A stretch of 64,000 bases of DNA from the NCBI RefSeq assembly GCF_029870285.1, contig NZ_JACSYA010000018.1, forward strand, positions 43,297 through 107,296. Reading direction: 5' to 3'. Origin of the DNA: Delftia sp. PS-11 (GTDB taxonomy: Bacteria > Pseudomonadota > Gammaproteobacteria > Burkholderiales > Burkholderiaceae_C). Each line of letters begins with the position of its first letter. Positions within the stretch are counted from its first letter, which is position 1. The notes under the pieces are model-generated. The model made no database searches. It was given only the letters and a program-made list of their open reading frames with translations, and was not told the DNA's origin. This document shows positions 28,368 through 40,577 of the stretch, in pieces. The position numbers and the translations under genes were made by a program.

Positions 28368-30563
28368 ATGACACGCAGAGTCACCATCAACACTCCTTTG
28401 GCAGACCAGTTGCAGCTGCGCAGGCTGCAGGGACGCGAGGAAATCAGCCACCTGTTCGCACTGGAAATCGACCTGCTCGGCGAACACAGCAGCATCGACC
28501 CCAAGGCCCTGCTGGGCCAGGGTGCCACCGTTGCGGTGCAAACCCAGGATGGCGGCACGCGCTACATCGACGGCCTGATCACCGGCTTCGGCATGCGCGG
28601 CCAGGACGAACACCGCAACTTCCTGTACCGCGCACGCCTGTCGCCCTGGCTGTGGCTGGCCACACGCCGCAGCGACTTTCGCATCTTCCAGAACAAAACC
28701 GTGCCCGACATCCTCAGGCAAGTGCTGGGCCTGTACGGGCACCCCATGGAGCAGCGCCTGACCCGCTCCTACCGCACCTGGGAATACTGCGTGCAATACA
28801 ACGAGACGGACTTCCAGTTCGCCTCGCGCCTCATGGAACATGAAGGCATCTACTACTTCCACCAGCACAGCGCAGGCCAGCACGTGCTGACCATGTGCGA
28901 TGACATCATCGCCTCGCACAGCCCCCTGCCCGGTGGCGCCGTCATTGCCTTCCACCCGCCCGGCAAAGCCGCTGCGGCACGCGAGGAATGCATCCATGCC
29001 TGGGAACTGAACCAGTGCGTCAAGCCAGGCCAGCACTACAACGACGACTACGACTTCAAAAAACCCAGAGCGGACCTGTCGAACATGCGCCGCACACCGC
29101 CCGGCCATGCGCACGACACCTATGAAATCTATGAATGGCCCGGCGGCTATACCGACCCCGGCGACGGCCAGGACTACGTGCGCGTGCGCCTGCAGCAAAG
29201 CCTCACGCGCCAAAGCACCGTACAGGGCCGCTCCAACCACCGTGCGCTGGCACCGGGCTATACCTTCACCCTGGACAACTACCCCCGCAGCGACCAGAAC
29301 CAGTCCTACCTGATCACGGCCGTCGACTACGCCTTCGAGGAAAACGCACGCGCCAGCGACAGCGGCGAAGGATCGGTACAGAAATTCGTGCTCCAGGCCC
29401 AGCCCACCAGCCTGCCCTTCAAGCCCGAACGCGCCACGCCCAAACCGCACACCACAGGCCCGCAGACCGCCGTCGTCGTCGGCCCGCCCGGCGAGGAAAT
29501 CTGGACCGACCAATACGGCCGCATCAAAGTCCAGTTCCACTGGGACCGGCTGGGCAGCATGAACGAAAACTCCAGCTGCTGGATGCGCGTCGCCACCAGC
29601 TGGGCAGGGCCGGGCTTCGGGGCCATACACATCCCGCGCATCGGCATGGAGGTCATCGTTGACTTTCTCAACGGCGACCCCGACTACCCCATCGTCATGG
29701 GCTGCGTCTACAACGCCGCCAACATGCCGCCGTGGGCGCTGCCGGCCAACGCCACGCAATCGGGCATCAAGACCCGCTCCAGCAAAGGCGGCTCCCCGGG
29801 GGCCGGCATGAAAAACGGCGCAGGCGATGCCAACGCCATCCGCTTCGAGGACAAGGCCGGAGCCGAGCAGCTATGGCTGCACGCGCAAAAGGACCAGCTC
29901 ACCGAAGTGGAAAACGACGAAGACAAATGGGTGGGCAACGACCGGCGCAAAACCATCGACCGGGACGAAACCAGCGTCATCCACCGCGACCGCACCGAAA
30001 CCGTGGACCGCAACGAAAAGATCAATGTGCACGGCTGGCGCACTGAGGAGGTGGACCAGGACGAAACCCTTACCGTGCACCAGAACCGCCAAAGGACCGT
30101 GGACCTGAACGAAAGCGTGCGGATCGGACAGTCACGCAACAAAACAGTGGGCAAGCACGAGAAAGACAAGATAGGACGCAACTGGTCCATCACCGTCGGC
30201 CGATTCAAGACAGAGACGATTGGCATCGCGTACATGCAAAACGCGGGGGTCGCCAAAATGGTGAATATCGGCGTGGCCTACAACCTCAATGTCGGCATGA
30301 CCATGCTCACCAATGTGGGCAACAGCCGCAAAGACACGACTGGCAAGACGCATGACATCAGCGTGGGAGACAGGTACGAGCTCAAGGTCGGCTCAGCGCC
30401 AGGGTCCTCCATCACCATGGATGGCAAAAGCATCACACTGAAGGTTGGAAAAAGCATGATCGTGATGCAGGCAGACGGGACCATTGCCATCAATGGCAAC
30501 ACCATCGATGTAGTCGGCTCCAAGCACATCGGCATGGAATCCGATCGGATAGACCTGAACTGA
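28368..30563 (+). CDS. vgrG: VgrG/TssI, T6SS spike protein
   Basis: A 731-residue VgrG. The gp27-like part shows LFALEIDLLGEHSSIDPKALLG, TVPDILRQVLGLYG and YNETDFQFASRLMEHEGIYYF. The gp5-like OB and needle part shows EEIWTDQYGRIKVQFHWDRLG, ATSWAGPGFGAIHIPRIGMEVIVDFLNGDPD, then a long beta-helix rich in VDxNExxxVHxxRTxxV repeats. The C-terminus ends with the DUF2345-like DGKSITLKVGKSMIVM segment. No catalytic extension is obvious. Downstream adaptor, PAAR-like and RHS genes indicate this spike carries the RHS toxin. Confidence 0.95.
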   Translation: MTRRVTINTPLADQLQLRRLQGREEISHLFALEIDLLGEHSSIDPKALLGQGATVAVQTQDGGTRYIDGLITGFGMRGQDEHRNFLYRARLSPWLWLATRRSDFRIFQNKTVPDILRQVLGLYGHPMEQRLTRSYRTWEYCVQYNETDFQFASRLMEHEGIYYFHQHSAGQHVLTMCDDIIASHSPLPGGAVIAFHPPGKAAAAREECIHAWELNQCVKPGQHYNDDYDFKKPRADLSNMRRTPPGHAHDTYEIYEWPGGYTDPGDGQDYVRVRLQQSLTRQSTVQGRSNHRALAPGYTFTLDNYPRSDQNQSYLITAVDYAFEENARASDSGEGSVQKFVLQAQPTSLPFKPERATPKPHTTGPQTAVVVGPPGEEIWTDQYGRIKVQFHWDRLGSMNENSSCWMRVATSWAGPGFGAIHIPRIGMEVIVDFLNGDPDYPIVMGCVYNAANMPPWALPANATQSGIKTRSSKGGSPGAGMKNGAGDANAIRFEDKAGAEQLWLHAQKDQLTEVENDEDKWVGNDRRKTIDRDETSVIHRDRTETVDRNEKINVHGWRTEEVDQDETLTVHQNRQRTVDLNESVRIGQSRNKTVGKHEKDKIGRNWSITVGRFKTETIGIAYMQNAGVAKMVNIGVAYNLNVGMTMLTNVGNSRKDTTGKTHDISVGDRYELKVGSAPGSSITMDGKSITLKVGKSMIVMQADGTIAINGNTIDVVGSKHIGMESDRIDLN

Positions 30564-31687: not shown

Positions 31688-32047
31688 ATGGCTCAGGAAA
31701 TGGGAACGGCAAAGGACAGCCAGTTTGTTTTGATCAGCACGCTGCCGGATGTATGCCTGACGCCTGATAGAAAAGGAGTACCTGTACCCTACCCCATCAT
31801 GCACAGCATGGATCAAAGCGAACAGTGCTCTCCCAATGTTTTTTTTGCAGGAAAACCTGCCTACATGCACGAAGAAAGCTATGTTGACAACGTAAAAGGG
31901 GACGAACCAGGCGGGGGCAAAGGGATCGTTTCCGGCACGCATGTGGCTATCAGCCGCAGTGAAGAGCACAGCTCGACTGTTTTTGTCAATGGTCGCCATG
32001 TCGTGCGAACTGGTGACAAGGTCTGGATGAACCGCAAGAAGCCCTGA
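31688..32047 (+). CDS. DUF4150 PAAR-like spike-tip protein
   Basis: A 119-residue DUF4150/PAAR-like protein with ISTLPDVCLTPDRKGVPVPYP, the core PNVFFAGKPAYMHEESYVDNVKGDEPG, GIVSGTHVAISRSEEHSSTVFVNG and HVVRTGDKVWMNRK. PAAR-like proteins cap the VgrG trimer and carry the effector. This supplies the PAAR function missing from the N-terminus of the RHS protein two genes downstream. Confidence 0.88.
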   Translation: MAQEMGTAKDSQFVLISTLPDVCLTPDRKGVPVPYPIMHSMDQSEQCSPNVFFAGKPAYMHEESYVDNVKGDEPGGGKGIVSGTHVAISRSEEHSSTVFVNGRHVVRTGDKVWMNRKKP

Positions 32048-32076
32048 ATTGCCACAATCAGAATGGATTATTGCAA

Positions 32077-32688
32077 ATGAGCACCTCCGGAAATGGGAGC
32101 AGTGATGGCTACGAATATTCAAGAAACCCTGAAGGTGATGGATGGGTTCTTCATGAAGTCGTCGTCACTCCCGAAGAAGGCTATAACGTTTACAAACGAG
32201 CCACCAAAAAAACCAACGGATTCCCTCAACCAGGCACCCATGCCAACACACAGGGGATCGTCACACCAAAAACCGAAACCTATCAAGGGCCGGCACCTGC
32301 ACAGGAAAAAACAGAACCCAAGCCAGGTCTGCCTGCGCTGTCTGACTGGGAAAAAGGCACTGATGGCTTGAAAAACTACGTCAATAGCGTTCCCAGAGAT
32401 GAAATACGCGGGGAAACTTCGGCAATTTTATTGGAAATGGGCGACTACGGCACCGGACGCTCTATCCCAGGAGGTGGGCCTGAGCAATATGCACGTCGAG
32501 AGCAGTTGAAAGTAGCGCTTGAACTCTTCAAGGAAAGGGCCAGCAAGGAAGGCATTGATCCCAAGGAAGTTCCAGAATTGGGAAACTATGCACTCAACCA
32601 GCTCACCACAGCATTCACTGCATCCATGTCAGGCGCATTCATCAGACGCAGAGGCAGTGGAAAATCCGACAAAAATTGTGCCTGCTGA
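32077..32688 (+). CDS. Unknown protein between PAAR-like and RHS genes
   Basis: A 203-residue soluble protein I cannot assign. The N-terminal half is polar and Pro/Thr-rich (GWVLHEVVVTPEEGYNVYKRA; KTETYQGPAPAQEKTEPKPG), the C-terminal half is helical (REQLKVALELFKERASKEG, GNYALNQLTTAFTASMSG) and ends in a short Cys pair. ATG 32077 is the likely start; an in-frame TTG at 32071 exists. By position it could be a chaperone or a second passenger of the VgrG-PAAR tip. No EagR-type chaperone gene is present in this locus. Confidence 0.5.
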   Translation: MSTSGNGSSDGYEYSRNPEGDGWVLHEVVVTPEEGYNVYKRATKKTNGFPQPGTHANTQGIVTPKTETYQGPAPAQEKTEPKPGLPALSDWEKGTDGLKNYVNSVPRDEIRGETSAILLEMGDYGTGRSIPGGGPEQYARREQLKVALELFKERASKEGIDPKEVPELGNYALNQLTTAFTASMSGAFIRRRGSGKSDKNCAC

Positions 32689-32736
32689 ATAATTTCACCG
32701 TGCAATTCAAATATATAAAAACAGAGGAAAAAACGC

Positions 32737-35700
32737 ATGAGCGCCAATCCTGAAACCATTCAACTAGCCTATGGTGCATGCGTGCTCAACGGGGTCAATG
32801 AACAAGACTTCGTTCTTGACGGAACCATGCCCCTGCATTGGCAACGCACCTACCTGTCCGACAACGCGCACACAGGCCCTCTGGGCCGGGGATGGACGGT
32901 GCCCATATCTTTGTACCTGCTTGCGCTGCCCGAGCAAGTGGTCTTCCTTGATACGCAGGGGCGGCGCATTTCGTTTCCGCCCCTGCAGGCGGGGCAGCAG
33001 TTCTACTCCCGGTATGAGCACATCACGCTGCGGCGCGTGAACAGCATGCGCTGGGAGATTGTCAGCCAGGACGGCACACGCCTGCTGTTCGGACCTGAAA
33101 ACGATGCTGATGCAACAGCGGCTCCCCCTGGCTACATCCCGTTGGCAGGCGTCAAAGACAGCAACGGCAACGGCTTTGCCCTGGAATACGATGTAGCCGG
33201 CCTGCCCGTGGCACTGCGCAGGACAGATGGCGTTCAGCTGGGGTTTACCTACGACTGGACCATTGTGCCGGGCAGTCCCCGGCTCATGCAGGTGCTCTGG
33301 TACGGGCAGGCCCAGGAAACGATCGTGGCCCCTGCAAAGCCGCCGCTGCTGGTCAGCTACCGCTACAGCAAAGACGGAGACCTGAGCGAAGTCGTGGACG
33401 ACACAGGCATGGTCTGCCAGCGGTTCTCCTACGTCAATCACCAGTTGGTGGAGCGCCAGGAAGCCGGCGGATTGACCGTACGCTACGACTGGAGTGCGCA
33501 CCAGCCCCAGGGCAAAGTGCTGGCCATGCACCACTCCACAGGCACGCAGTGGCACATGCGCTATGACGAGGCCACCCGCAAAGTCCAGGTCACGCAAAGC
33601 CATGGCGAACTGTCGCGCAGCTTCGAGCAGTGCTTCGACGCAGACGGCCACCTGCTTGTCTCAGTGGACGCACTGGGCGGTGTCACCCGGCTGCAGCGCG
33701 ATGCCCATGGGAACGTGCTTTCATACACCGACGCCCAGGGCAACATCACCACCTACGAATACGACTCGCGGGGCCGGACCACGGCGGCGCTGTTCCCTGA
33801 TGGCAGCCGGGAATCCACGCAATGGCTGCCAGGCCAGGACAAGCCCGCTGCCATCACCGACGCCCTGGAGCGAACCACCCGCTTCGAATGGGACGAGCGC
33901 GGCAACCTGCTGAGCACCACGGCTGCAGACGGCAGCACCACCCGCTACCACTATGATCAGCGCGGCCTGCCAGTCACCATCACCGATGCCCTGGGCAAAT
34001 CCAGGCAACTGCAATACAACGCCCTGGGCCAGCTCACCCAGTACACGGACTGTTCCGGCCAGCCCACGCAACTGCAGTGGGACCTGGAAGGCAACGTGGT
34101 GTCCATCACCGACGCACTGGGCCACAAGACGCTGCACCACTACACACGCCTGAACCGTGGCCTGCGCCTGACCCTTCTGCGGGCAGCGGACGGCAGCGAG
34201 CAACGCTTTGCCCACGACCCGGCAGGCCGCCTGATTGCGCACCAGGACCCGCTGGGGCAAAACACCCGCTACCAGCTCGACGCCTACGGCAACCCGCTTG
34301 CACGCACCAACGCCCTGGGCCACAGCCTGCAGTACGCATACGACGGCTTTGGCCGCCTGACGCGCCTCACCAACGAAAACGGAGCCCACTACCGCTTTGC
34401 CTGGGATGCACAGGATCGCCTCCTGGCCGAACAGGGCTTTGATGGCCGGCGCCTGGACTACCGCTACAACCGTGTCGGCCACCTGCTGGAAATGGTTGAC
34501 GGACTGCCGCAGGGCGCCGCATGGATGGGGCATGACCCAGCGGCCATCCGCACCTGCTACCAGCGCGACGCCATGGGCCGCATGCTGGAGCGCCATGCCC
34601 ACAAACACGGACAGCCCCCCATGCGCACACGCCTGTCCTACGACGCGGCAGGCCAGCTCACCATGGCTCGCAACGCCCATGCGCGGGTGCAGCTGCTCTA
34701 CAGCCCCACAGGCCAGATCGCCAGCGAAATCCTGCACACCCGCCTGGGCCAGCAGGCAGCACTCACGCACCGCTACGACCTGCTGGGCAACCGCATCTGC
34801 ACCACCTTGCCGGACGGGCGCACCATCCACACGCTGACCTATGGATCAGGCCATGTGCACCAGATCCACATCGACGGCGAAGTCATCTGCGACTTTGAAC
34901 GCGACGCCCTGCACCGGGAGATAGAACGCAGCCAGGGCACGCTGCGCAGCCGCTACCAGCTCGACCCCCTGGGCCGCCTGCTGGCCAGCCAGGCCGCACC
35001 CGCCACGCAGCAGGCCAGCGCAGCGCCTGCTGCCGGCATGCACAACACCACCAGCGGCCAAAGCATCGCAAGGCGCTACAGCTACGACGCGGCAGGCCAG
35101 CTGCAAAGCATCGACGACAGCCGCAGCGGCCGCACGCTCTACCAGTACGACGCCATCGGCCGCCTGACCCAGGCCCTGGCGGGCCATGCCGCAGAGCGTT
35201 TCGCCTTCGACCCGGCGCACAACCTCATCGACCCCGAGCAGCCGCCGCCACCACCGGCCAACCCCGCCAGCGCCCGCACGCCCGGCCAGGAGAGCGCGGA
35301 CGAACAATGGGCGCGCTACGTCAGAGAGCATCTGCAAGACCCCCTCCTGAACCTGCTGCAATCACGGGACAAGGACCAGCAGCCCGGCCCGGACCCCGCG
35401 CAATGGGACCGTGTGGCGGGCAACCGGCTCAAGGTCTGGCAGGAACACCGCTACCAGTACGACACCTGGGGCAACTGCACCCACAAGCGCAGCGGCAAAC
35501 ACCAGATACAGCACTACACCTGGGATGCGCAGCACCAGCTCATTGCCGTCCATACGGAAAACCACCACCAGCAACCGGGCGCCCAGGCGCACTGGCGCTA
35601 TGCCTACGACCCCTTTGGCCGGCGCATCGCCAAATGGCAGCAAACGCCCCGCTCCCAAAAGGCCGCACCAGACTCCGGCATGGACTCCGGCACAGACTGC

Positions 35701-36798
35701 GGCACGGACACCCGCCTCTGCCAAGTCACCCACCTCACCCACTTCCTGTGGGACGGCAACCGCCTGCTGGCCGAACACACCCTGCAGCCGAAGGACGGCC
35801 AGCACACAATCAGCCACCGACTGCACCTCTACGAGCCCGACAGCTTCGTGCCCCTGGCCCAGGTGCACAGCCTGTGGAACCAAGAGCAGCCGGCACGCGA
35901 GCAGGCCCTGGCCAACCCCTTTGTGCAACAGGCCCTGCACGCAGCGCGCAATGACGACAGGATCTGGAACACCCAGGTCCTGCCGCTGCAGCGCAAACTG
36001 CAATCGCGCCTGAAAGGCGTGGCGCCCCAGCAGGCACCGCCCAAGGCGCTGCAAAGCCAGACCCTGCATGTGCACACCGACCACCTGGGCACGCCCCGGG
36101 AGCTGACCAACGCAGACGGCCATATCGTCTGGGCCGCCAGCTACAAGGCCTGGGGCGCCACGGCCAGCATCGACTACCCTGCCGTGCCGCAGACAGTGCG
36201 CATGGGCAATACGCTGGCCCTGCACCAGGTGGAACAGGAGCAGGACAGCCGCCCTGAGCAGCACCTGAGGTTCCAGGGCCAGTACTTTGACATGGAGACC
36301 GGGCTGCATTACAACCGGTTCAGGTACTACGACCCGGATGTGGGCAGGTTTGTTAGTCAGGATCCGATTAGGTTGGCGGGGGGATTTAACGTATATCAAT
36401 ATGCCTTAAATCCCGTCGATTGGATCGACCCACTGGGTCTTGCTGGGGCAAGATCCACACAAACAGGACCGAATATTCCGGGAGGATCAGTTGATGGGTT
36501 AAGTACGGCAGAAGGTGGCAAAGGAATCACAAATGCAGCCGTTCAACGTGCTTATGATCGTGTTCCTAATAATTTGAGGAGAGACTATCATGGACACTGC
36601 GCAGAGGCTGATGCCATGAGTAAAGCAGCCAACTATTTAGGAATAACAACTGATGAAGAATTGAAAAATATGAATAAAAATTCAACATCAGCAGCATACA
36701 GAAATGATAAAAAAGGAAAACCAATGATTGCATGTCCAAGTTGTGCTTGGGTTCAGAAAGAGCAGGGAATAAAAGATGATAACTGCAAAATGAAATGA
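32737..36798 (+). CDS. rhs: RHS-repeat polymorphic toxin with C-terminal cytidine-deaminase-like domain
   Basis: A 1353-residue RHS/YD-repeat protein delivered by the T6SS. The N-terminus (DFVLDGTMPLHWQRTYLSD) is the DUF6531-like entry to the RHS shell; many YD repeats follow. The RHS-core signature RFRYYDPDVGRFVSQDPI and the DPLGL self-cleavage motif (D1231) end the shell. The tip of about 118 residues carries HGHCAEADAMSKAAN (C1288, E1290) and KGKPMIACPSC (C1333, C1336), a CAE plus CxxC zinc site of cytidine-deaminase folds, closest in style to YwqJ-type toxins. The substrate (DNA, RNA or nucleotide) cannot be told. The tip is AT-rich against a GC-rich shell, typical of swapped toxin ends. 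The immunity gene overlaps by 4 bases. Confidence 0.85.
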   Translation: MSANPETIQLAYGACVLNGVNEQDFVLDGTMPLHWQRTYLSDNAHTGPLGRGWTVPISLYLLALPEQVVFLDTQGRRISFPPLQAGQQFYSRYEHITLRRVNSMRWEIVSQDGTRLLFGPENDADATAAPPGYIPLAGVKDSNGNGFALEYDVAGLPVALRRTDGVQLGFTYDWTIVPGSPRLMQVLWYGQAQETIVAPAKPPLLVSYRYSKDGDLSEVVDDTGMVCQRFSYVNHQLVERQEAGGLTVRYDWSAHQPQGKVLAMHHSTGTQWHMRYDEATRKVQVTQSHGELSRSFEQCFDADGHLLVSVDALGGVTRLQRDAHGNVLSYTDAQGNITTYEYDSRGRTTAALFPDGSRESTQWLPGQDKPAAITDALERTTRFEWDERGNLLSTTAADGSTTRYHYDQRGLPVTITDALGKSRQLQYNALGQLTQYTDCSGQPTQLQWDLEGNVVSITDALGHKTLHHYTRLNRGLRLTLLRAADGSEQRFAHDPAGRLIAHQDPLGQNTRYQLDAYGNPLARTNALGHSLQYAYDGFGRLTRLTNENGAHYRFAWDAQDRLLAEQGFDGRRLDYRYNRVGHLLEMVDGLPQGAAWMGHDPAAIRTCYQRDAMGRMLERHAHKHGQPPMRTRLSYDAAGQLTMARNAHARVQLLYSPTGQIASEILHTRLGQQAALTHRYDLLGNRICTTLPDGRTIHTLTYGSGHVHQIHIDGEVICDFERDALHREIERSQGTLRSRYQLDPLGRLLASQAAPATQQASAAPAAGMHNTTSGQSIARRYSYDAAGQLQSIDDSRSGRTLYQYDAIGRLTQALAGHAAERFAFDPAHNLIDPEQPPPPPANPASARTPGQESADEQWARYVREHLQDPLLNLLQSRDKDQQPGPDPAQWDRVAGNRLKVWQEHRYQYDTWGNCTHKRSGKHQIQHYTWDAQHQLIAVHTENHHQQPGAQAHWRYAYDPFGRRIAKWQQTPRSQKAAPDSGMDSGTDCGTDTRLCQVTHLTHFLWDGNRLLAEHTLQPKDGQHTISHRLHLYEPDSFVPLAQVHSLWNQEQPAREQALANPFVQQALHAARNDDRIWNTQVLPLQRKLQSRLKGVAPQQAPPKALQSQTLHVHTDHLGTPRELTNADGHIVWAASYKAWGATASIDYPAVPQTVRMGNTLALHQVEQEQDSRPEQHLRFQGQYFDMETGLHYNRFRYYDPDVGRFVSQDPIRLAGGFNVYQYALNPVDWIDPLGLAGARSTQTGPNIPGGSVDGLSTAEGGKGITNAAVQRAYDRVPNNLRRDYHGHCAEADAMSKAANYLGITTDEELKNMNKNSTSAAYRNDKKGKPMIACPSCAWVQKEQGIKDDNCKMK

Positions 36799-37271
36799 AT
36801 ATGGAAAAACCAAAAATAAAGCTCCTCATTGAAGAGGCTGCAGAAGTTATTGACTTGGAAAATATTGATTTTAGAAAAATTATTAATTTATACCATGAAT
36901 ACTTAATATTCTTATCAAATGATAAATATTTCAACTTATTATTTAATAAAAGAGAAGTGTTATTTTTTTCAAAAATATTGAATATCATAATAATTAAATC
37001 GAAAGAAGATTTTTTAGATTTTTTTATGAAGAATAAAAAAAATCAGTTATGGAGATTACACGGAAAATTTCCAAAAAAAAATAAATGCTTGATTAGACTA
37101 CTTATCACCGCAATGGCTACAGAGGATTCAATTTTAGATGGGAACGAAGATAGAGAGTATCTAAATTTTGATATGCTGTCTTTGATAATTATTACCTTGC
37201 GAGAAGTCGATATTTTTTACGTAAAAAATTTCATAGAGTTTATTAAGTCAATCAAAAATCGAACAGTCTGA
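36795..37271 (+). CDS. Probable immunity protein to the RHS deaminase toxin
   Basis: A 158-residue, very AT-rich gene starting inside the RHS stop codon (ATGA overlap at 36795; ATG 36801 is an alternative). The protein is helical and Lys/Ile-rich, without signal peptide, as expected for an antidote to a cytoplasmic toxin. It is homologous to the product at 38238-38696, which sits behind the second deaminase tip (shared pattern KPxIKxxIExxxEVIDLEN / DF at the N-terminus and LLITAMATEDSILDG / LNFDML further on). I know no named family for it. Confidence 0.75.
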   Translation: MNMEKPKIKLLIEEAAEVIDLENIDFRKIINLYHEYLIFLSNDKYFNLLFNKREVLFFSKILNIIIIKSKEDFLDFFMKNKKNQLWRLHGKFPKKNKCLIRLLITAMATEDSILDGNEDREYLNFDMLSLIIITLREVDIFYVKNFIEFIKSIKNRTV

Positions 37272-37313
37272 TGTACGGAGCATTGATATGAGATAAGCGC
37301 GAGGATGCGTTAA

Positions 37314-38231
37314 AATATAAAACACACCTTCGCACTGCTGGCCGAATACACCCTGCAGCCGAAGGACGGCCAGCACGCAGCGCGCAATGACGACAGCATC
37401 TGGAACACCCAAGTCCTGCCGCTGCAGCGCAAACTGCAATCGCGCCTGAAAGGCGTGGCGCCCCAGCAGGCACCGCCCAAGGCGCTGCAAAGCCAGACCC
37501 TGCATGTGCACACCGACCACCTGGGCACGCCCCGGGAGCTGACCAACGCAGACGGCCATATCGTCTGGGCCGCCAGCTACAAGGCCTGGGGCGCCACGGC
37601 CAGCATCGACTACCCTGCCGTGCCGCAGACAGTGCGCATGGGCAATACGCTGGCCCTGCACCAGGTGGAACAGGAGCAGGACAGCCGCCCTGAGCAGCAC
37701 CTGAGGTTCCAGGGCCAGTACTTTGACATGGAGACCGGGCTGCATTACAACCGGTTCAGGTACTACGACCCGGATGTGGGCAGGTTTGTTAGTCAGGATC
37801 CGATTGGGTTGGCGGGGGGATTTAACGTATATCAATACGCCTTAAATCCCGTCGATTGGATCGACCCACTGGGTCTTGCTGGGGCAAGATCCACACACAC
37901 AGGACCCAATATCCCAGGCGGATTTAGTGAAGGGTTGAGTACAGGCGAGGGGGGAAGTGGAATCACAAATCCAGCCGTGAAAAGAGCCTATGATAGAGTC
38001 CCAAAAGAAATCCAAGAACCTTTTCATGGCCAATGTGCCGAAGCAGAAGCAATGAGCAAAGCTGCTAACGCGGCCGGCGTGAAAACAGACAATCAACTGA
38101 AAGAGATGAATAAAGACTCTATATCTTCTGCATATAGAAATGATAAAAAAGGCAAGCCAATGTATGCCTGCCGGAGCTGTGCCTGGGTCCAAAGAGAGCA
38201 AGGCATTAAAGACGGAAATTGCAAAAATTGA
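37314..38231 (+). pseudogene. Orphan RHS C-terminal cassette with a second deaminase toxin tip
   Basis: An open frame without a convincing start codon or ribosome site (first GTG at 37455). From about 37333 it copies the intact rhs gene: 37377 onward matches 35941 onward almost base for base for about 500 bases, and the short stretch before it matches 35766-35805, so 135 bases (45 codons) of the parent are missing. After DPLGLAGA the tip differs: it is a related deaminase with HGQCAEAEAMSKAAN and YACRSCAWV. The site QDPIG here reads QDPIR in the intact gene. It looks like a silent or displaced cassette that could be brought into the active gene by recombination across the shared 500 bases. 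Confidence 0.8.
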
Positions 38232-38237
38232 TAATTT

Positions 38238-38696
38238 ATGAATAAGCCCAGAATAAAAGAAATAATTGAAAATATTGAAGAAATTCTAGAGATAGAAAAT
38301 AAAGATTTTAAATATGTACTAAATATTTATTATGAATATATAAAGAAGAAGCTTGAAAATAATGAATTTAATTCTTATGCAAGCGAAAATTGCATAGAAT
38401 TATTTTCATGCAATTTTTGGTTGTTAGAGAAAAATTCAAAAGGACTCATGACTTCTGATGAAATAATTTCAGAAAAAGTCAGGCTTATTAATTTAAAAGA
38501 AAAATCTGAAGAGAATTTCTCAAATCTCATTCAGTTACTGTTAACAGGTTTGGCCACTAAGGAAGGCATGTTAAATTATAGCAACTATGAAGAATATTTG
38601 TCCGTTGACATGCTTGAAATATCAGTTGTTTCATTGAGAAACTTCAATATTAAATTCGCAGAAGATTTTTTGATTTTTTGCAAAACTCATAAATAA
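38238..38696 (+). CDS. Probable immunity protein of the orphan deaminase cassette
   Basis: A 152-residue AT-rich gene 6 bases after the orphan toxin stop. It is a paralogue of the immunity candidate at 36795: both begin with a KPxIK motif, keep an ExENxDF segment, and share the LLLTGLATKEGML / NYEEYLSVDML region. The divergence between the two immunity proteins parallels that between the two toxin tips, which argues for specific pairing. It may be expressed from its own promoter to protect against sister cells that still use the second tip. Confidence 0.7.
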   Translation: MNKPRIKEIIENIEEILEIENKDFKYVLNIYYEYIKKKLENNEFNSYASENCIELFSCNFWLLEKNSKGLMTSDEIISEKVRLINLKEKSEENFSNLIQLLLTGLATKEGMLNYSNYEEYLSVDMLEISVVSLRNFNIKFAEDFLIFCKTHK

Positions 38697-38746
38697 AATC
38701 CAAATTTAATATCATCACACATGATAATCAAGAGAAATTTTTAAAA

Positions 38747-39163
38747 ATGAATCACAATATTATTAATTTAAAAAATAATTATCCTTTTATGTTTTCAGAA
38801 GGCGCTGGTGAAAATAAAATTCAGGAACTGATTGAAATTTATCACGACCTATTATCATCACAGTATCAAGAATTCTTGAGATTTTCCGGAGGCGCAGTAA
38901 TAGGCGCATACCCTGTGTATGGAGTGAGCTCTGTTGATTTAATGGATGCGCATTTCAACACAGCGAATAAAGTCACAAAGAAATATGAAGAGGACGGTAT
39001 GATTGAGAAAGGTCGATTTTTGGTGATATCTGAAAATCATGCTGGAGATCCAATATATCTTAATCTAGATGGATCTGTTGTAGAGTCTTCTCATGACGGT
39101 TTTCAATATAAATCATGGGAAAATTTCAACGAATTTATCAAATGTTGTGCTGGTAAATCCTAG
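38747..39163 (+). CDS. SUKH (SMI1/KNR4-like) immunity protein
   Basis: A 138-residue protein of SMI1/KNR4 (SUKH) type, the commonest immunity superfamily for nuclease and deaminase toxins. The pattern is SSQYQEFLRFSGGAVIGAYPVYGV, then FLVISENHAGDPIYLNLDGSV and the closing WENFNEFIKCC. It is unrelated to the two immunity proteins before it, so it presumably neutralises a toxin no longer encoded here. ATG 38747 lacks a strong ribosome site. Confidence 0.72.
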   Translation: MNHNIINLKNNYPFMFSEGAGENKIQELIEIYHDLLSSQYQEFLRFSGGAVIGAYPVYGVSSVDLMDAHFNTANKVTKKYEEDGMIEKGRFLVISENHAGDPIYLNLDGSVVESSHDGFQYKSWENFNEFIKCCAGKS

Positions 39164-39329
39164 AGCATATTAGGCAATTTGAAAAATTCTCATTTACAAC
39201 AAGCACTTACGCCAGTTTCTACAAATTTAGAATCATAGAATTTATTAATCAAGCTAAAGAATTGCAAAAAATTAAAAATAGCTGAGAAAAACAGCATCAA
39301 AAAACTATTTATTATTAATATATCGACAA

Positions 39330-39809
39330 ATGAGCAGCATCAACTCTCTAATGTCAAGCTATCAGAGAGAAATGAAAAATATAGGAGAAATAATCGGCAC
39401 TACATCTCCAAACAAAATTATTAAAGAAAGTAAAATTTATGCGATTGATGGAGTTACGAGACACAATATAAGCCCAATGCTAATTGACAGATTTATCTTC
39501 TGCGATAGATGGGATGAATTTTATCTTTCGCAAAATATGCTTTCTTTGGATGAGATAAATTCTTTCCCATACGATGCGAAACTGACAGAGTGGATAAATC
39601 TAAGAAAAGAAAATTGGGATCATGTCCCACCTAAAAGCATAGGCGATTCTCTTTGCTCTATTTTTTCTTTCAATCCTTATGAGCTGGAAGAGATATATCT
39701 TGACTGGAGCGAGTGCAGAGAAGAACCAACCATTTGGCATTGTTTGCAATCCGATTATTATAAATATAATAATCTAGAGGAGTTTTTCATAGAAATATCA
39801 AAAATATAG
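39330..39809 (+). CDS. Unknown AT-rich gene, probable orphan immunity protein
   Basis: A 159-residue soluble protein without a family I can name. The C-terminal EPTIWHCLQSDYYKYNNLEEF recalls the closing strand and helix of SUKH-like proteins, but the glycine-rich core is not obvious. It lies in the immunity graveyard behind the RHS gene. Its stop codon sits directly on the border where RHS-core DNA resumes at 39810, so it was probably once part of an RHS toxin-immunity unit. Confidence 0.5.
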   Translation: MSSINSLMSSYQREMKNIGEIIGTTSPNKIIKESKIYAIDGVTRHNISPMLIDRFIFCDRWDEFYLSQNMLSLDEINSFPYDAKLTEWINLRKENWDHVPPKSIGDSLCSIFSFNPYELEEIYLDWSECREEPTIWHCLQSDYYKYNNLEEFFIEISKI

Positions 39810-40224
39810 GGCAGCGAGCAACGCTTTGCCTACGACCCGGCAGGCCGCCTGATTGCACACCAGGACCCGCTGGGGCAAAACACCCGCTACCAGCTCGACG
39901 CCTACGGCAACCCGCTTGCACGCACCAACGCCCTGGGCCACAGCCTGCAGTACGCATACGACGGCTTTGGCCGCCTGACGCGCCTCACCAACGAAAACGG
40001 AGCCCACTACCGCTTTGCCTGGGATGCACAGGATCGCCTCCTGGCCGAACAGGGCTTTGATGGCCGGCGCCTGGACTACCGCTACAACCGTGTCGGCCAC
40101 CTGCTGGAAATGGTTGACGGACTGCCGCAGGGCGCCGCATGGATGGGGCATGACCCAGCGGCCATCCGCACCTGCTACCAGCTCGCCCCCCCTGGGCCAC
40201 TTGCTGGCCAGCCAGGCCGCACCC
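39810..40224 (+). pseudogene. RHS core fragment with internal deletion
   Basis: The segment is a near-identical copy of two parts of the intact rhs gene: 34192-34563 and 34960 to about 35004. The joint is at GCTACCAG (40174-40181), which occurs twice in the parent (34556-34563 and 34952-34959). Deletion between these repeats removed 396 bases, an in-frame 132 codons. There is no start, and homology stops at about 40224. It is the tail-end scar of the toxin locus and could serve as a recombination partner for the active gene. Confidence 0.85.
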
Positions 40225-40426
40225 TCTGAAGAAGTGGTGTCAGCCACATGAAGGAACCACGGGAAAAGCCTGCCCCACATAGCACGCCGCTCCAGACCCC
40301 GGCAAGCCTGAGCCTGCACAGACAGGGGAAAGCATCGAGATGGCATGCAAACCTTTTCTATCAAAGGCAGGCCGCTATCAAAACAGGATTGATTTGTTGC
40401 AAGTTTGATACAAAATAAAGCTAAAA

Positions 40427-40445
40427 GAAATCATTCTCATTTGCA
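40427..40445 (+). promoter_or_regulatory. Fur-box-like operator before the TonB receptor
   Basis: The sequence GAAATCATTCTCATTTGCA resembles the beta-proteobacterial Fur consensus (imperfect palindrome of TGATAATNATTATCA type; its reverse strand reads GCAAATGAGAATGATTTC). It lies about 130 bases upstream of the receptor ATG at 40578, within an AT-rich patch (40380-40450) that is likely to hold the promoter. Iron-dependent repression is inferred. Confidence 0.6.
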
Positions 40446-40577
40446 ATCTAAAATTCAATGCCGCCGTGCTGCCACAGCTGCGCGCTGGCTGCAGCCACGC
40501 TCTGCAGCGTCTTGTCCAAGCTGGCAGGCCTGGCACGCGCCATCGCCACCATTTCAATGCTTTCCGGAATACCGACC

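What the first reader, a model, noticed from the sequence alone, without database searches (positions are those of the whole stretch)
32737..40224. RHS deaminase locus with a spare toxin cassette and two deletion-scarred RHS copies
Seen: an intact rhs gene with a CAE/CxxC deaminase tip, its immunity gene, then a start-less second tip (related deaminase) preceded by about 500 bases nearly identical to the active gene, and its own immunity gene. Inference: recombination across the shared block could swap the active tip for the second one together with its immunity gene, a toxin-switching reserve inside one T6SS. The two tips differ clearly in residues around the active site (CPSC versus CRSC), so they may be mutually non-immune.
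Basis: partly seen in the sequence, partly recalled or inferred. Interest (0 to 1): 0.75.

Follow-up and report, generated by a model that had tools for sequence, protein, structure and literature searches.

The report
Rhs toxin gene with displaced spare
A bacterial gene that looks like a toxin used in fights between bacteria is followed by a second, apparently silent toxin end with its own antidote gene; this is a well-described kind of leftover that can sometimes be switched on by recombination.

Summary
At the end of a T6SS cluster lies a 1353-aa Rhs gene (32737-36798) with a YwqJ-like deaminase tip and its immunity gene. Then follow a core fragment with a second, related tip (37335-38231) and its immunity gene. 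A mid-core relic ends the array at 40224.

The core block is 99% identical between the copies (4 differences in 495 nt); the tips are 73% and the immunity proteins 32% identical. This sharp boundary fits displacement of an old tip by an incoming one. It is the dissociated-tip array of Jackson 2009; activation of an orphan tip by recombination was reported in Salmonella (Koskiniemi 2014).

Such arrays are common here: 15 of 59 full-length rhs loci found in 53 congeneric genomes. No congener showed this locus, so swapped alleles could be neither found nor excluded. One crossover would delete 1436 bp, with the active tip and its immunity gene, rather than swap. The less common feature is that both tips belong to one family. 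New member of a known kind.

The parts
28368..30563 (+). vgrG (TssI), T6SS spike upstream of the array
   Evidence: TIGR03361 618 bits
30575..31684 (+). DUF2169 gene
   Evidence: PF09937 E 6e-71
31688..32047 (+). PAAR-like gene (Tox-PAAR-like)
   Evidence: PF13665 E 5e-30
32071..32688 (+). 205-aa gene; its C-terminal end resembles the N-terminal segment that is fused to the core in P0003
   Evidence: no match in Pfam or NCBIfam; resemblance read by eye; separate gene, rhs has GAGGA before its own ATG
32737..36438 (+). Rhs core of the intact gene
   Evidence: RHS_repeat 263 bits, RHS 62 bits, DUF6531 60 bits; Rhs_assc_core
36439..36798 (+). tip 1, YwqJ-like deaminase (HCAE...CPSC)
   Evidence: 57-65% identical homologues P0002-P0004 on other Rhs proteins
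36795..37271 (+). imm1, proposed cognate immunity gene overlapping the tip-1 stop
   Evidence: position and homology to imm2; no Pfam match
37335..37874 (+). core fragment of the orphan cassette with a 135-nt internal deletion; 37380-37874 is 99.2% identical to 35944-36438
37875..38231 (+). tip 2, orphan YwqJ-like deaminase (QCAE...CRSC)
   Evidence: PF14431 28.0 bits against cut-off 25.9; 73% identical to tip 1
38238..38696 (+). imm2, proposed immunity gene of tip 2
   Evidence: 32% identical to imm1; homologues P0005 99%, P0006 63%, P0007 52%
38747..39163 (+). orphan SUKH-family (immunity-like) gene without a tip
   Evidence: PF14567 36.9 bits, PF09346 36.9 bits, both over cut-off
39330..39809 (+). 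ORF4, unnamed rare family, proposed orphan immunity gene (by position only)
   Evidence: no Pfam match but a spurious one at E 0.17, no NCBIfam match; 8 proteins at E 0.001 in the 5.8-billion database, own included; low GC like the rest of the array
39810..40224 (+). mid-core relic with an internal deletion of about 395 nt; no tip

Best explanation
This is a dissociated-tip array at a T6SS-linked rhs locus. An earlier Rhs protein here carried tip 2. Incoming DNA with a similar core end and the related tip 1 plus imm1 integrated by homologous recombination in the core. Tip 1 became the expressed end, and the 3' piece of core with tip 2 and imm2 was pushed downstream, where it lost 135 nt. Still older events left the SUKH gene, ORF4 and the mid-core relic. 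Today the locus most likely makes one Rhs deaminase, delivered by the VgrG/PAAR spike and neutralised by imm1. The downstream immunity genes may still protect against kin that carry older tips. Rarely, recombination between the 99%-identical blocks joins the core to tip 2 and deletes tip 1 and imm1, unless the locus was duplicated first. Shown here: anatomy, homologies, sharp divergence boundary, frequency of such arrays in the genus. Inferred: order of events, delivery, toxicity, immunity pairing, switching.
For: The core block differs at 4 of 495 nt (dS 0.02) while the tips have pS 0.71 (dS about 2.1, saturated), dN 0.19, and the immunity genes dN 0.69. Identity falls from 49 of 50 to 41 of 50 at the core-tip border and lower after it. 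GC falls from 0.63-0.65 in core to 0.25-0.46 in tips and their immunity genes. 15 of 59 full-length rhs loci, in 8 of the 53 congeneric genomes, have same-strand core fragments within 6 kb downstream (one search gives 15 of 56 on 124 typed rows; three more full-length loci are among the 18 rows that I had not typed). A genome of another genus, G245, has a full-length rhs plus two orphan cassettes, one with a related deaminase tip. The same architecture and model are described by Jackson 2009, and activation of an orphan tip by Koskiniemi 2014.
Against: No strain-level relatives were available, so displacement was not seen happening at this locus. In 6 of the 8 main-orphan pairs examined the tips are unrelated, while here they are homologous, so duplication followed by divergence with gene conversion of the core is not fully excluded. 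Neither toxicity nor immunity was tested. The whole-protein Pfam score for the main gene's deaminase is below the cut-off.
Confidence: 0.85

Rival explanations
1. A maintained switching reserve: selection keeps the second tip and imm2 because subpopulations that recombine gain a new toxin.
For: Tip 2 and imm2 are open frames with motifs kept; the shared block has a 393-nt exact run, and its core part (99.2%) is more alike than the longest repeated block in each of the 14 other congeneric arrays (74.3-98.7%; not on quite equal footing, as those blocks were not trimmed to core). A precedent exists in Salmonella.
Against: High block identity and an open frame are also expected of a recent displacement. 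The tip divergence reflects the time before the orphan state. imm2 has no clear ribosome-binding site of its own. The array tail is decaying. No swapped allele was found.
Confidence: 0.25
2. An immunity bank: the value of the tail lies in imm2, SUKH and ORF4 protecting against kin with older tips, and tip 2 is a passenger.
For: Three downstream immunity-like genes, two without any tip; such arrays are described in Vibrio cholerae (PMC5361080) and Serratia (PMC10539506), with protection shown in Serratia. No terminator-like site on the + strand in 36700-40460, and 18 promoter-like sites on both strands against 8.6 (sd 3.3) in shuffles, among them + strand ones at 37288-37316 and 38670-38699 (consensus matches only, in AT-rich DNA).
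Against: Expression is unknown. The SUKH gene and ORF4 are called immunity from family or position only. imm2 may need translation of tip 2 for good expression.
Confidence: 0.45
3. Tandem duplication of tip and immunity followed by divergence, with the core kept alike by gene conversion.
For: The two tips and the two immunity proteins are homologous and lie in the same order.
Against: Tip synonymous sites are saturated while the adjacent core is nearly unchanged; gene conversion would have to stop at the core-tip border every time. imm2 is closer to P0006 (63%) and P0007 (51%), listed for other genera, than to imm1 (32%).
Confidence: 0.08

Closest known systems
Dissociated C-terminal tip arrays of rhs loci (Jackson et al. 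2009, PMC2935791; abstract and section 'Displacement of C-terminal tips' read)
   Same: Full-length rhs followed by core fragments near-identical to the main core, each with a different tip; low GC downstream; tip-less core fragments are mentioned for two E. coli strains.
   Different: In Serratia the displaced tips were entirely dissimilar; here the two tips are 73% identical siblings.
Rhs main / orphan toxin switching in Salmonella LT2 (Koskiniemi et al. 2014, PMC3967940; abstract and passages read)
   Same: Main gene, downstream tip fragment without start, with its immunity gene, and about 520 bp of shared core.
   Different: Recombinants were detected there; here there is only sequence. 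Identity of the shared block is 99% here against 95% there.
Effector displacement and immunity arrays (V. cholerae, PMC5361080, abstract and one section read; Serratia Rhs1, PMC10539506, passages read)
   Same: Orphan immunity genes stack up downstream of the current pair.
   Different: Here both kinds occur together: a complete orphan tip-immunity cassette and tip-less immunity-like genes.

Membership tests
T6SS-linked Rhs polymorphic toxin | YD/RHS repeats with conserved core end and variable C-terminal tip | tested here: met
   PF05593, PF03527, TIGR03696
T6SS-linked Rhs polymorphic toxin | VgrG and PAAR genes next to rhs, T6SS cluster alongside | tested here: met
   TssI, PAAR-like, TssK, TssL, TssM, TssA, TssC, TssF, TssH and TagH
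T6SS-linked Rhs polymorphic toxin | DPxGL-(18)-DPxGL self-cleavage motif before the tip | tested here: inconclusive
   Both aspartates present; the main gene has a non-consensus residue in the first motif while the orphan block has the consensus. The same kind of departure occurs in an orphan of G030 and in a Bernardetia sequence. Cleavage not testable here.
YwqJ-like deaminase toxin (PF14431) | Pfam score over cut-off and (C/H)AE...CxxC motif | tested here: met
   Met for tip 2: 28.0 bits, cut-off 25.9. Tip 1 on its own matches within E 1, score not shown; whole main protein 17.2 bits, below cut-off. CxxC in all 5 aligned sequences, CAE in 4 and CGE in one.
YwqJ-like deaminase toxin (PF14431) | Deaminase fold and activity | not tested
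   Structure prediction never ran, machine busy in all 12 tries; no deaminase among solved structures by sequence up to E 10
Orphan Rhs tip/immunity cassette | Downstream core fragment near-identical to the main core, with another tip and immunity gene, lacking the gene start | tested here: met
Orphan Rhs tip/immunity cassette | Toxicity of the orphan tip and specific neutralisation by its immunity protein | not testable with these tools
   needs bench work

The most novel reading that the evidence does not exclude
Unlike the arrays of unrelated tips seen in most pairs compared here (6 of 8), this one keeps two members of one deaminase family whose immunity proteins have diverged much more than the toxins (dN 0.69 against 0.19). 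It could be a place where sibling toxin specificities are generated and exchanged within a lineage, with the older immunity kept so that cells survive both the old and the new sibling toxin during a switch.
Probability: 0.12. Interest if true: 0.5.

Novelty: new member of a known kind. Interest (0 to 1): 0.3.

Why it matters
It extends a known mode of toxin diversification to a deaminase tip and an immunity family that look rare: at E 0.001 imm1/imm2 were found in 1 of 399 genomes of the family, the own one, and the tip profile in 3 of 399. It also gives a clean case where both siblings can be compared for cross-immunity. It does not open a new mechanism.

Tried and rejected
Swapped alleles in relatives. 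I searched the second tip with its core in 53 congeneric genomes, the immunity alignment in 53 and 399 genomes, the tip alignment in 399 family and 398 phylum genomes (at most 11 candidates per genome were scored, so these are lower bounds), ORF4 in 250 and the 205-aa gene in 53 and 329. The own genome is in each of these sets. The locus was seen only there. Related tips occur in G245 (orphan), G266 (full-length rhs) and G741. The 205-aa gene has two weak, short matches in G239 (26 bits, 31-36 residues), not followed. The scan of genome contigs with the tip alignment gave 2 weak loci, both of one Bernardetia MAG. In the plasmid collection imm2 had no match, ORF4 one weak match in Methylobacterium (29% identity), and the orphan block 1183 records, of which 2 are covered over 80% or more of the query, so into the tip: Variovorax paradoxus at 43% and an Acinetobacter baumannii record at 35% identity; neither was fetched.

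Same genomic site in relatives. The TonB-receptor gene right of the array is kept in congeners, but the six regions fetched (of 20 matches with E 0, own included) show none of the T6SS or rhs genes beside it at E 1e-5, so there is no comparable allele. In two of the six, homology begins at 40374 and 40396, which puts the right edge of the island between 40224 and about 40374 (inference).

Link between imm1/imm2 and the immunity genes of G245 and G266: profile comparison not significant (probability 1.6%, 0.9% and 17.1%); not claimed.

A weakened main gene, read from its non-consensus residue in the first DPxGL motif: kept as an observation only, because the same kind of residue occurs elsewhere and its effect is unknown.

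Counts. Fifteen of these 18 are further segments of frames already counted, fragments away from a full-length gene, or frames of 600-900 aa that count as neither; three are further full-length frames (G037:C26, G002:C27, G015:C29) without a fragment row on their contigs. So 15 of 56 becomes 15 of 59. In one search, of 21 loci looked at, two or more tips were extracted in 9, of which 8 hold a main-orphan pair; the pattern found fewer than two tips in the other 12. One fetched locus (L089) was not analysed.

Full report
What is there. The window holds a T6SS cluster (TagH, TssK, TssL, TssM, TssA, TssC, TssF and TssH by NCBIfam) followed by vgrG, a DUF2169 gene, a PAAR-like gene, a 205-aa gene and a 1353-aa rhs gene at 32737-36798. 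The rhs gene has GAGGA, a likely ribosome-binding site, before its ATG. Its last 119 residues are a tip with HCAE and CPSC motifs.

Downstream, in order, come imm1 (36795-37271), a core fragment (37335-37874), tip 2 (37875-38231, QCAE and CRSC), imm2 (38238-38696), a SUKH-family gene (38747-39163, Pfam over cut-off), an unnamed ORF4 (39330-39809) and a mid-core relic (39810-40224). The core fragment lacks 135 nt and the relic about 395 nt of the intact core.

Divergence along the repeat. Over 495 nt of core (35944-36438 against 37380-37874) there are 4 differences, dS 0.02, with an exact run of 393 nt. From the tip border on, identity is 28-41 of 50 per window. The tips are 73% identical (86 of 118 residues) with pS 0.71, dS 2.13 (saturated) and dN 0.19. 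The immunity proteins are 32% identical (48 of 152) with dN 0.69. imm2 is more alike to proteins listed for Delftia sp. UME58 (63%) and Ectopseudomonas khazarica (51%) than to imm1. This pattern is expected if a whole tip-immunity unit of other ancestry was brought in next to an otherwise shared core.

Is it unusual in this genus? Counting the three full-length frames among those 18, there are 59 full-length rhs loci (open frame at least 900 aa). Fifteen of them, in 8 genomes, have a core fragment on the same strand within 6 kb downstream. I fetched the other 14 of these arrays and five further loci with core fragments. The longest repeated block in each of the 14 is 74.3 to 98.7% identical; the core block here, at 99.2%, is more alike, though the others were not trimmed to core. 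Of 21 loci examined for tips, 8 gave a main-orphan pair. Six of these pairs were unrelated at E 0.001, one shared a 69-aa stretch, and only the window had full-length homologous tips. A genome of another genus (G245) has a full-length rhs followed by two orphan cassettes, one with a tip of this deaminase family, 53-56% identical to the two tips here.

Swapped alleles. None were found, and the search could hardly have found any. In one search no match outside the own genome goes beyond query residue 182 of 258, while the tip begins at residue 141. imm1/imm2 were found only in the own genome among 53 congeneric and 399 family genomes. The 205-aa gene was found only in the own genome among 53 congeners; among 329 family genomes one more, G239, gave weak short matches. 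The genomes held are one per species. The same rhs protein (P0001) and ORF4 (P0008) are listed on a 5.54-Mb contig, which suggests that a complete assembly exists and speaks against a local artefact for these two genes.

How it most likely works. The main Rhs is delivered by the T6SS and its tip is held in check by imm1 (inference from known families). The displaced cassette lacks a proper start; the first in-frame start codon is a GTG at 37455. imm2 starts 6 nt after the tip-2 stop without a clear ribosome-binding site, so it may depend on translation of tip 2 or be weakly made (inference). No terminator-like site on the + strand lies in 36700-40460, so read-through transcription is possible; promoter-like sites exceed the shuffles (18 against 8.6, sd 3.3, both strands), so own promoters are possible too. 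A crossover between the two core blocks would remove 1436 bp, with tip 1 and imm1, and leave core plus tip 2 and imm2. That is replacement, not exchange. In Salmonella LT2 such recombinants were detected, and a duplication step was proposed that keeps both immunity genes (PMC3967940).

Comparison with what is known. Jackson et al. 2009 (PMC2935791, abstract and one section) describe the same arrays, the near-identical core repeats, the low GC downstream, tip-less core fragments and displacement with circular intermediates. Kirchberger et al. 2017 (PMC5361080, abstract and one section) describe immunity arrays by displacement. Hagan et al. 2023 (PMC10539506, passages) show an orphan immunity protein protecting against an effector with another tip. 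Poole et al. 2011 (PMC3150448) was seen only as a search listing. This locus is a new member of that kind. Its less common trait is that both tips are siblings of one family.

Limits. No structure could be predicted because the machine was busy (12 tries). The deaminase assignment rests on a Pfam match just over the cut-off for tip 2 and on motifs. The main gene departs from consensus in the first DPxGL motif; both aspartates, which are catalytic in a related Rhs protein (PMC8765631, passages; for the second motif also PMC8636562, passages), are present. Whether cleavage is affected is unknown.

Noticed in passing
38747-39163 and 39330-39809: Two further immunity-like genes without tips in the array; ORF4 belongs to a family with 8 proteins found at E 0.001 including its own, and the own genome was the only one of 250 family genomes with a match.
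   Followed up: partly
32071-32737: The N-terminal segment that is part of the Rhs protein in P0003 appears here as a separate 205-aa gene; the rhs gene has its own likely ribosome-binding site. Resemblance read by eye only.
   Followed up: partly
36360-36380: The intact gene has a non-consensus residue in the first DPxGL self-cleavage motif; the orphan block has the consensus.
   Followed up: partly
L035 (own genome, contig C32:36500-43077): A second rhs locus of the same genome also has repeated core pieces downstream; its main frame (1248 aa) ends within the core-end region, whose match lies in another frame (247 aa), so it may be broken or misassembled; the contig ends there.
   Followed up: no
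40224-40374: Right edge of the T6SS/rhs island; the TonB-receptor gene beside it lies without these T6SS or rhs genes in the six congeneric regions fetched.
   Followed up: yes
L086 (G048) and L087 (G002): Rows of rhs core fragments, some with stop codons, without a full-length rhs frame among the matches nearby.
   Followed up: no
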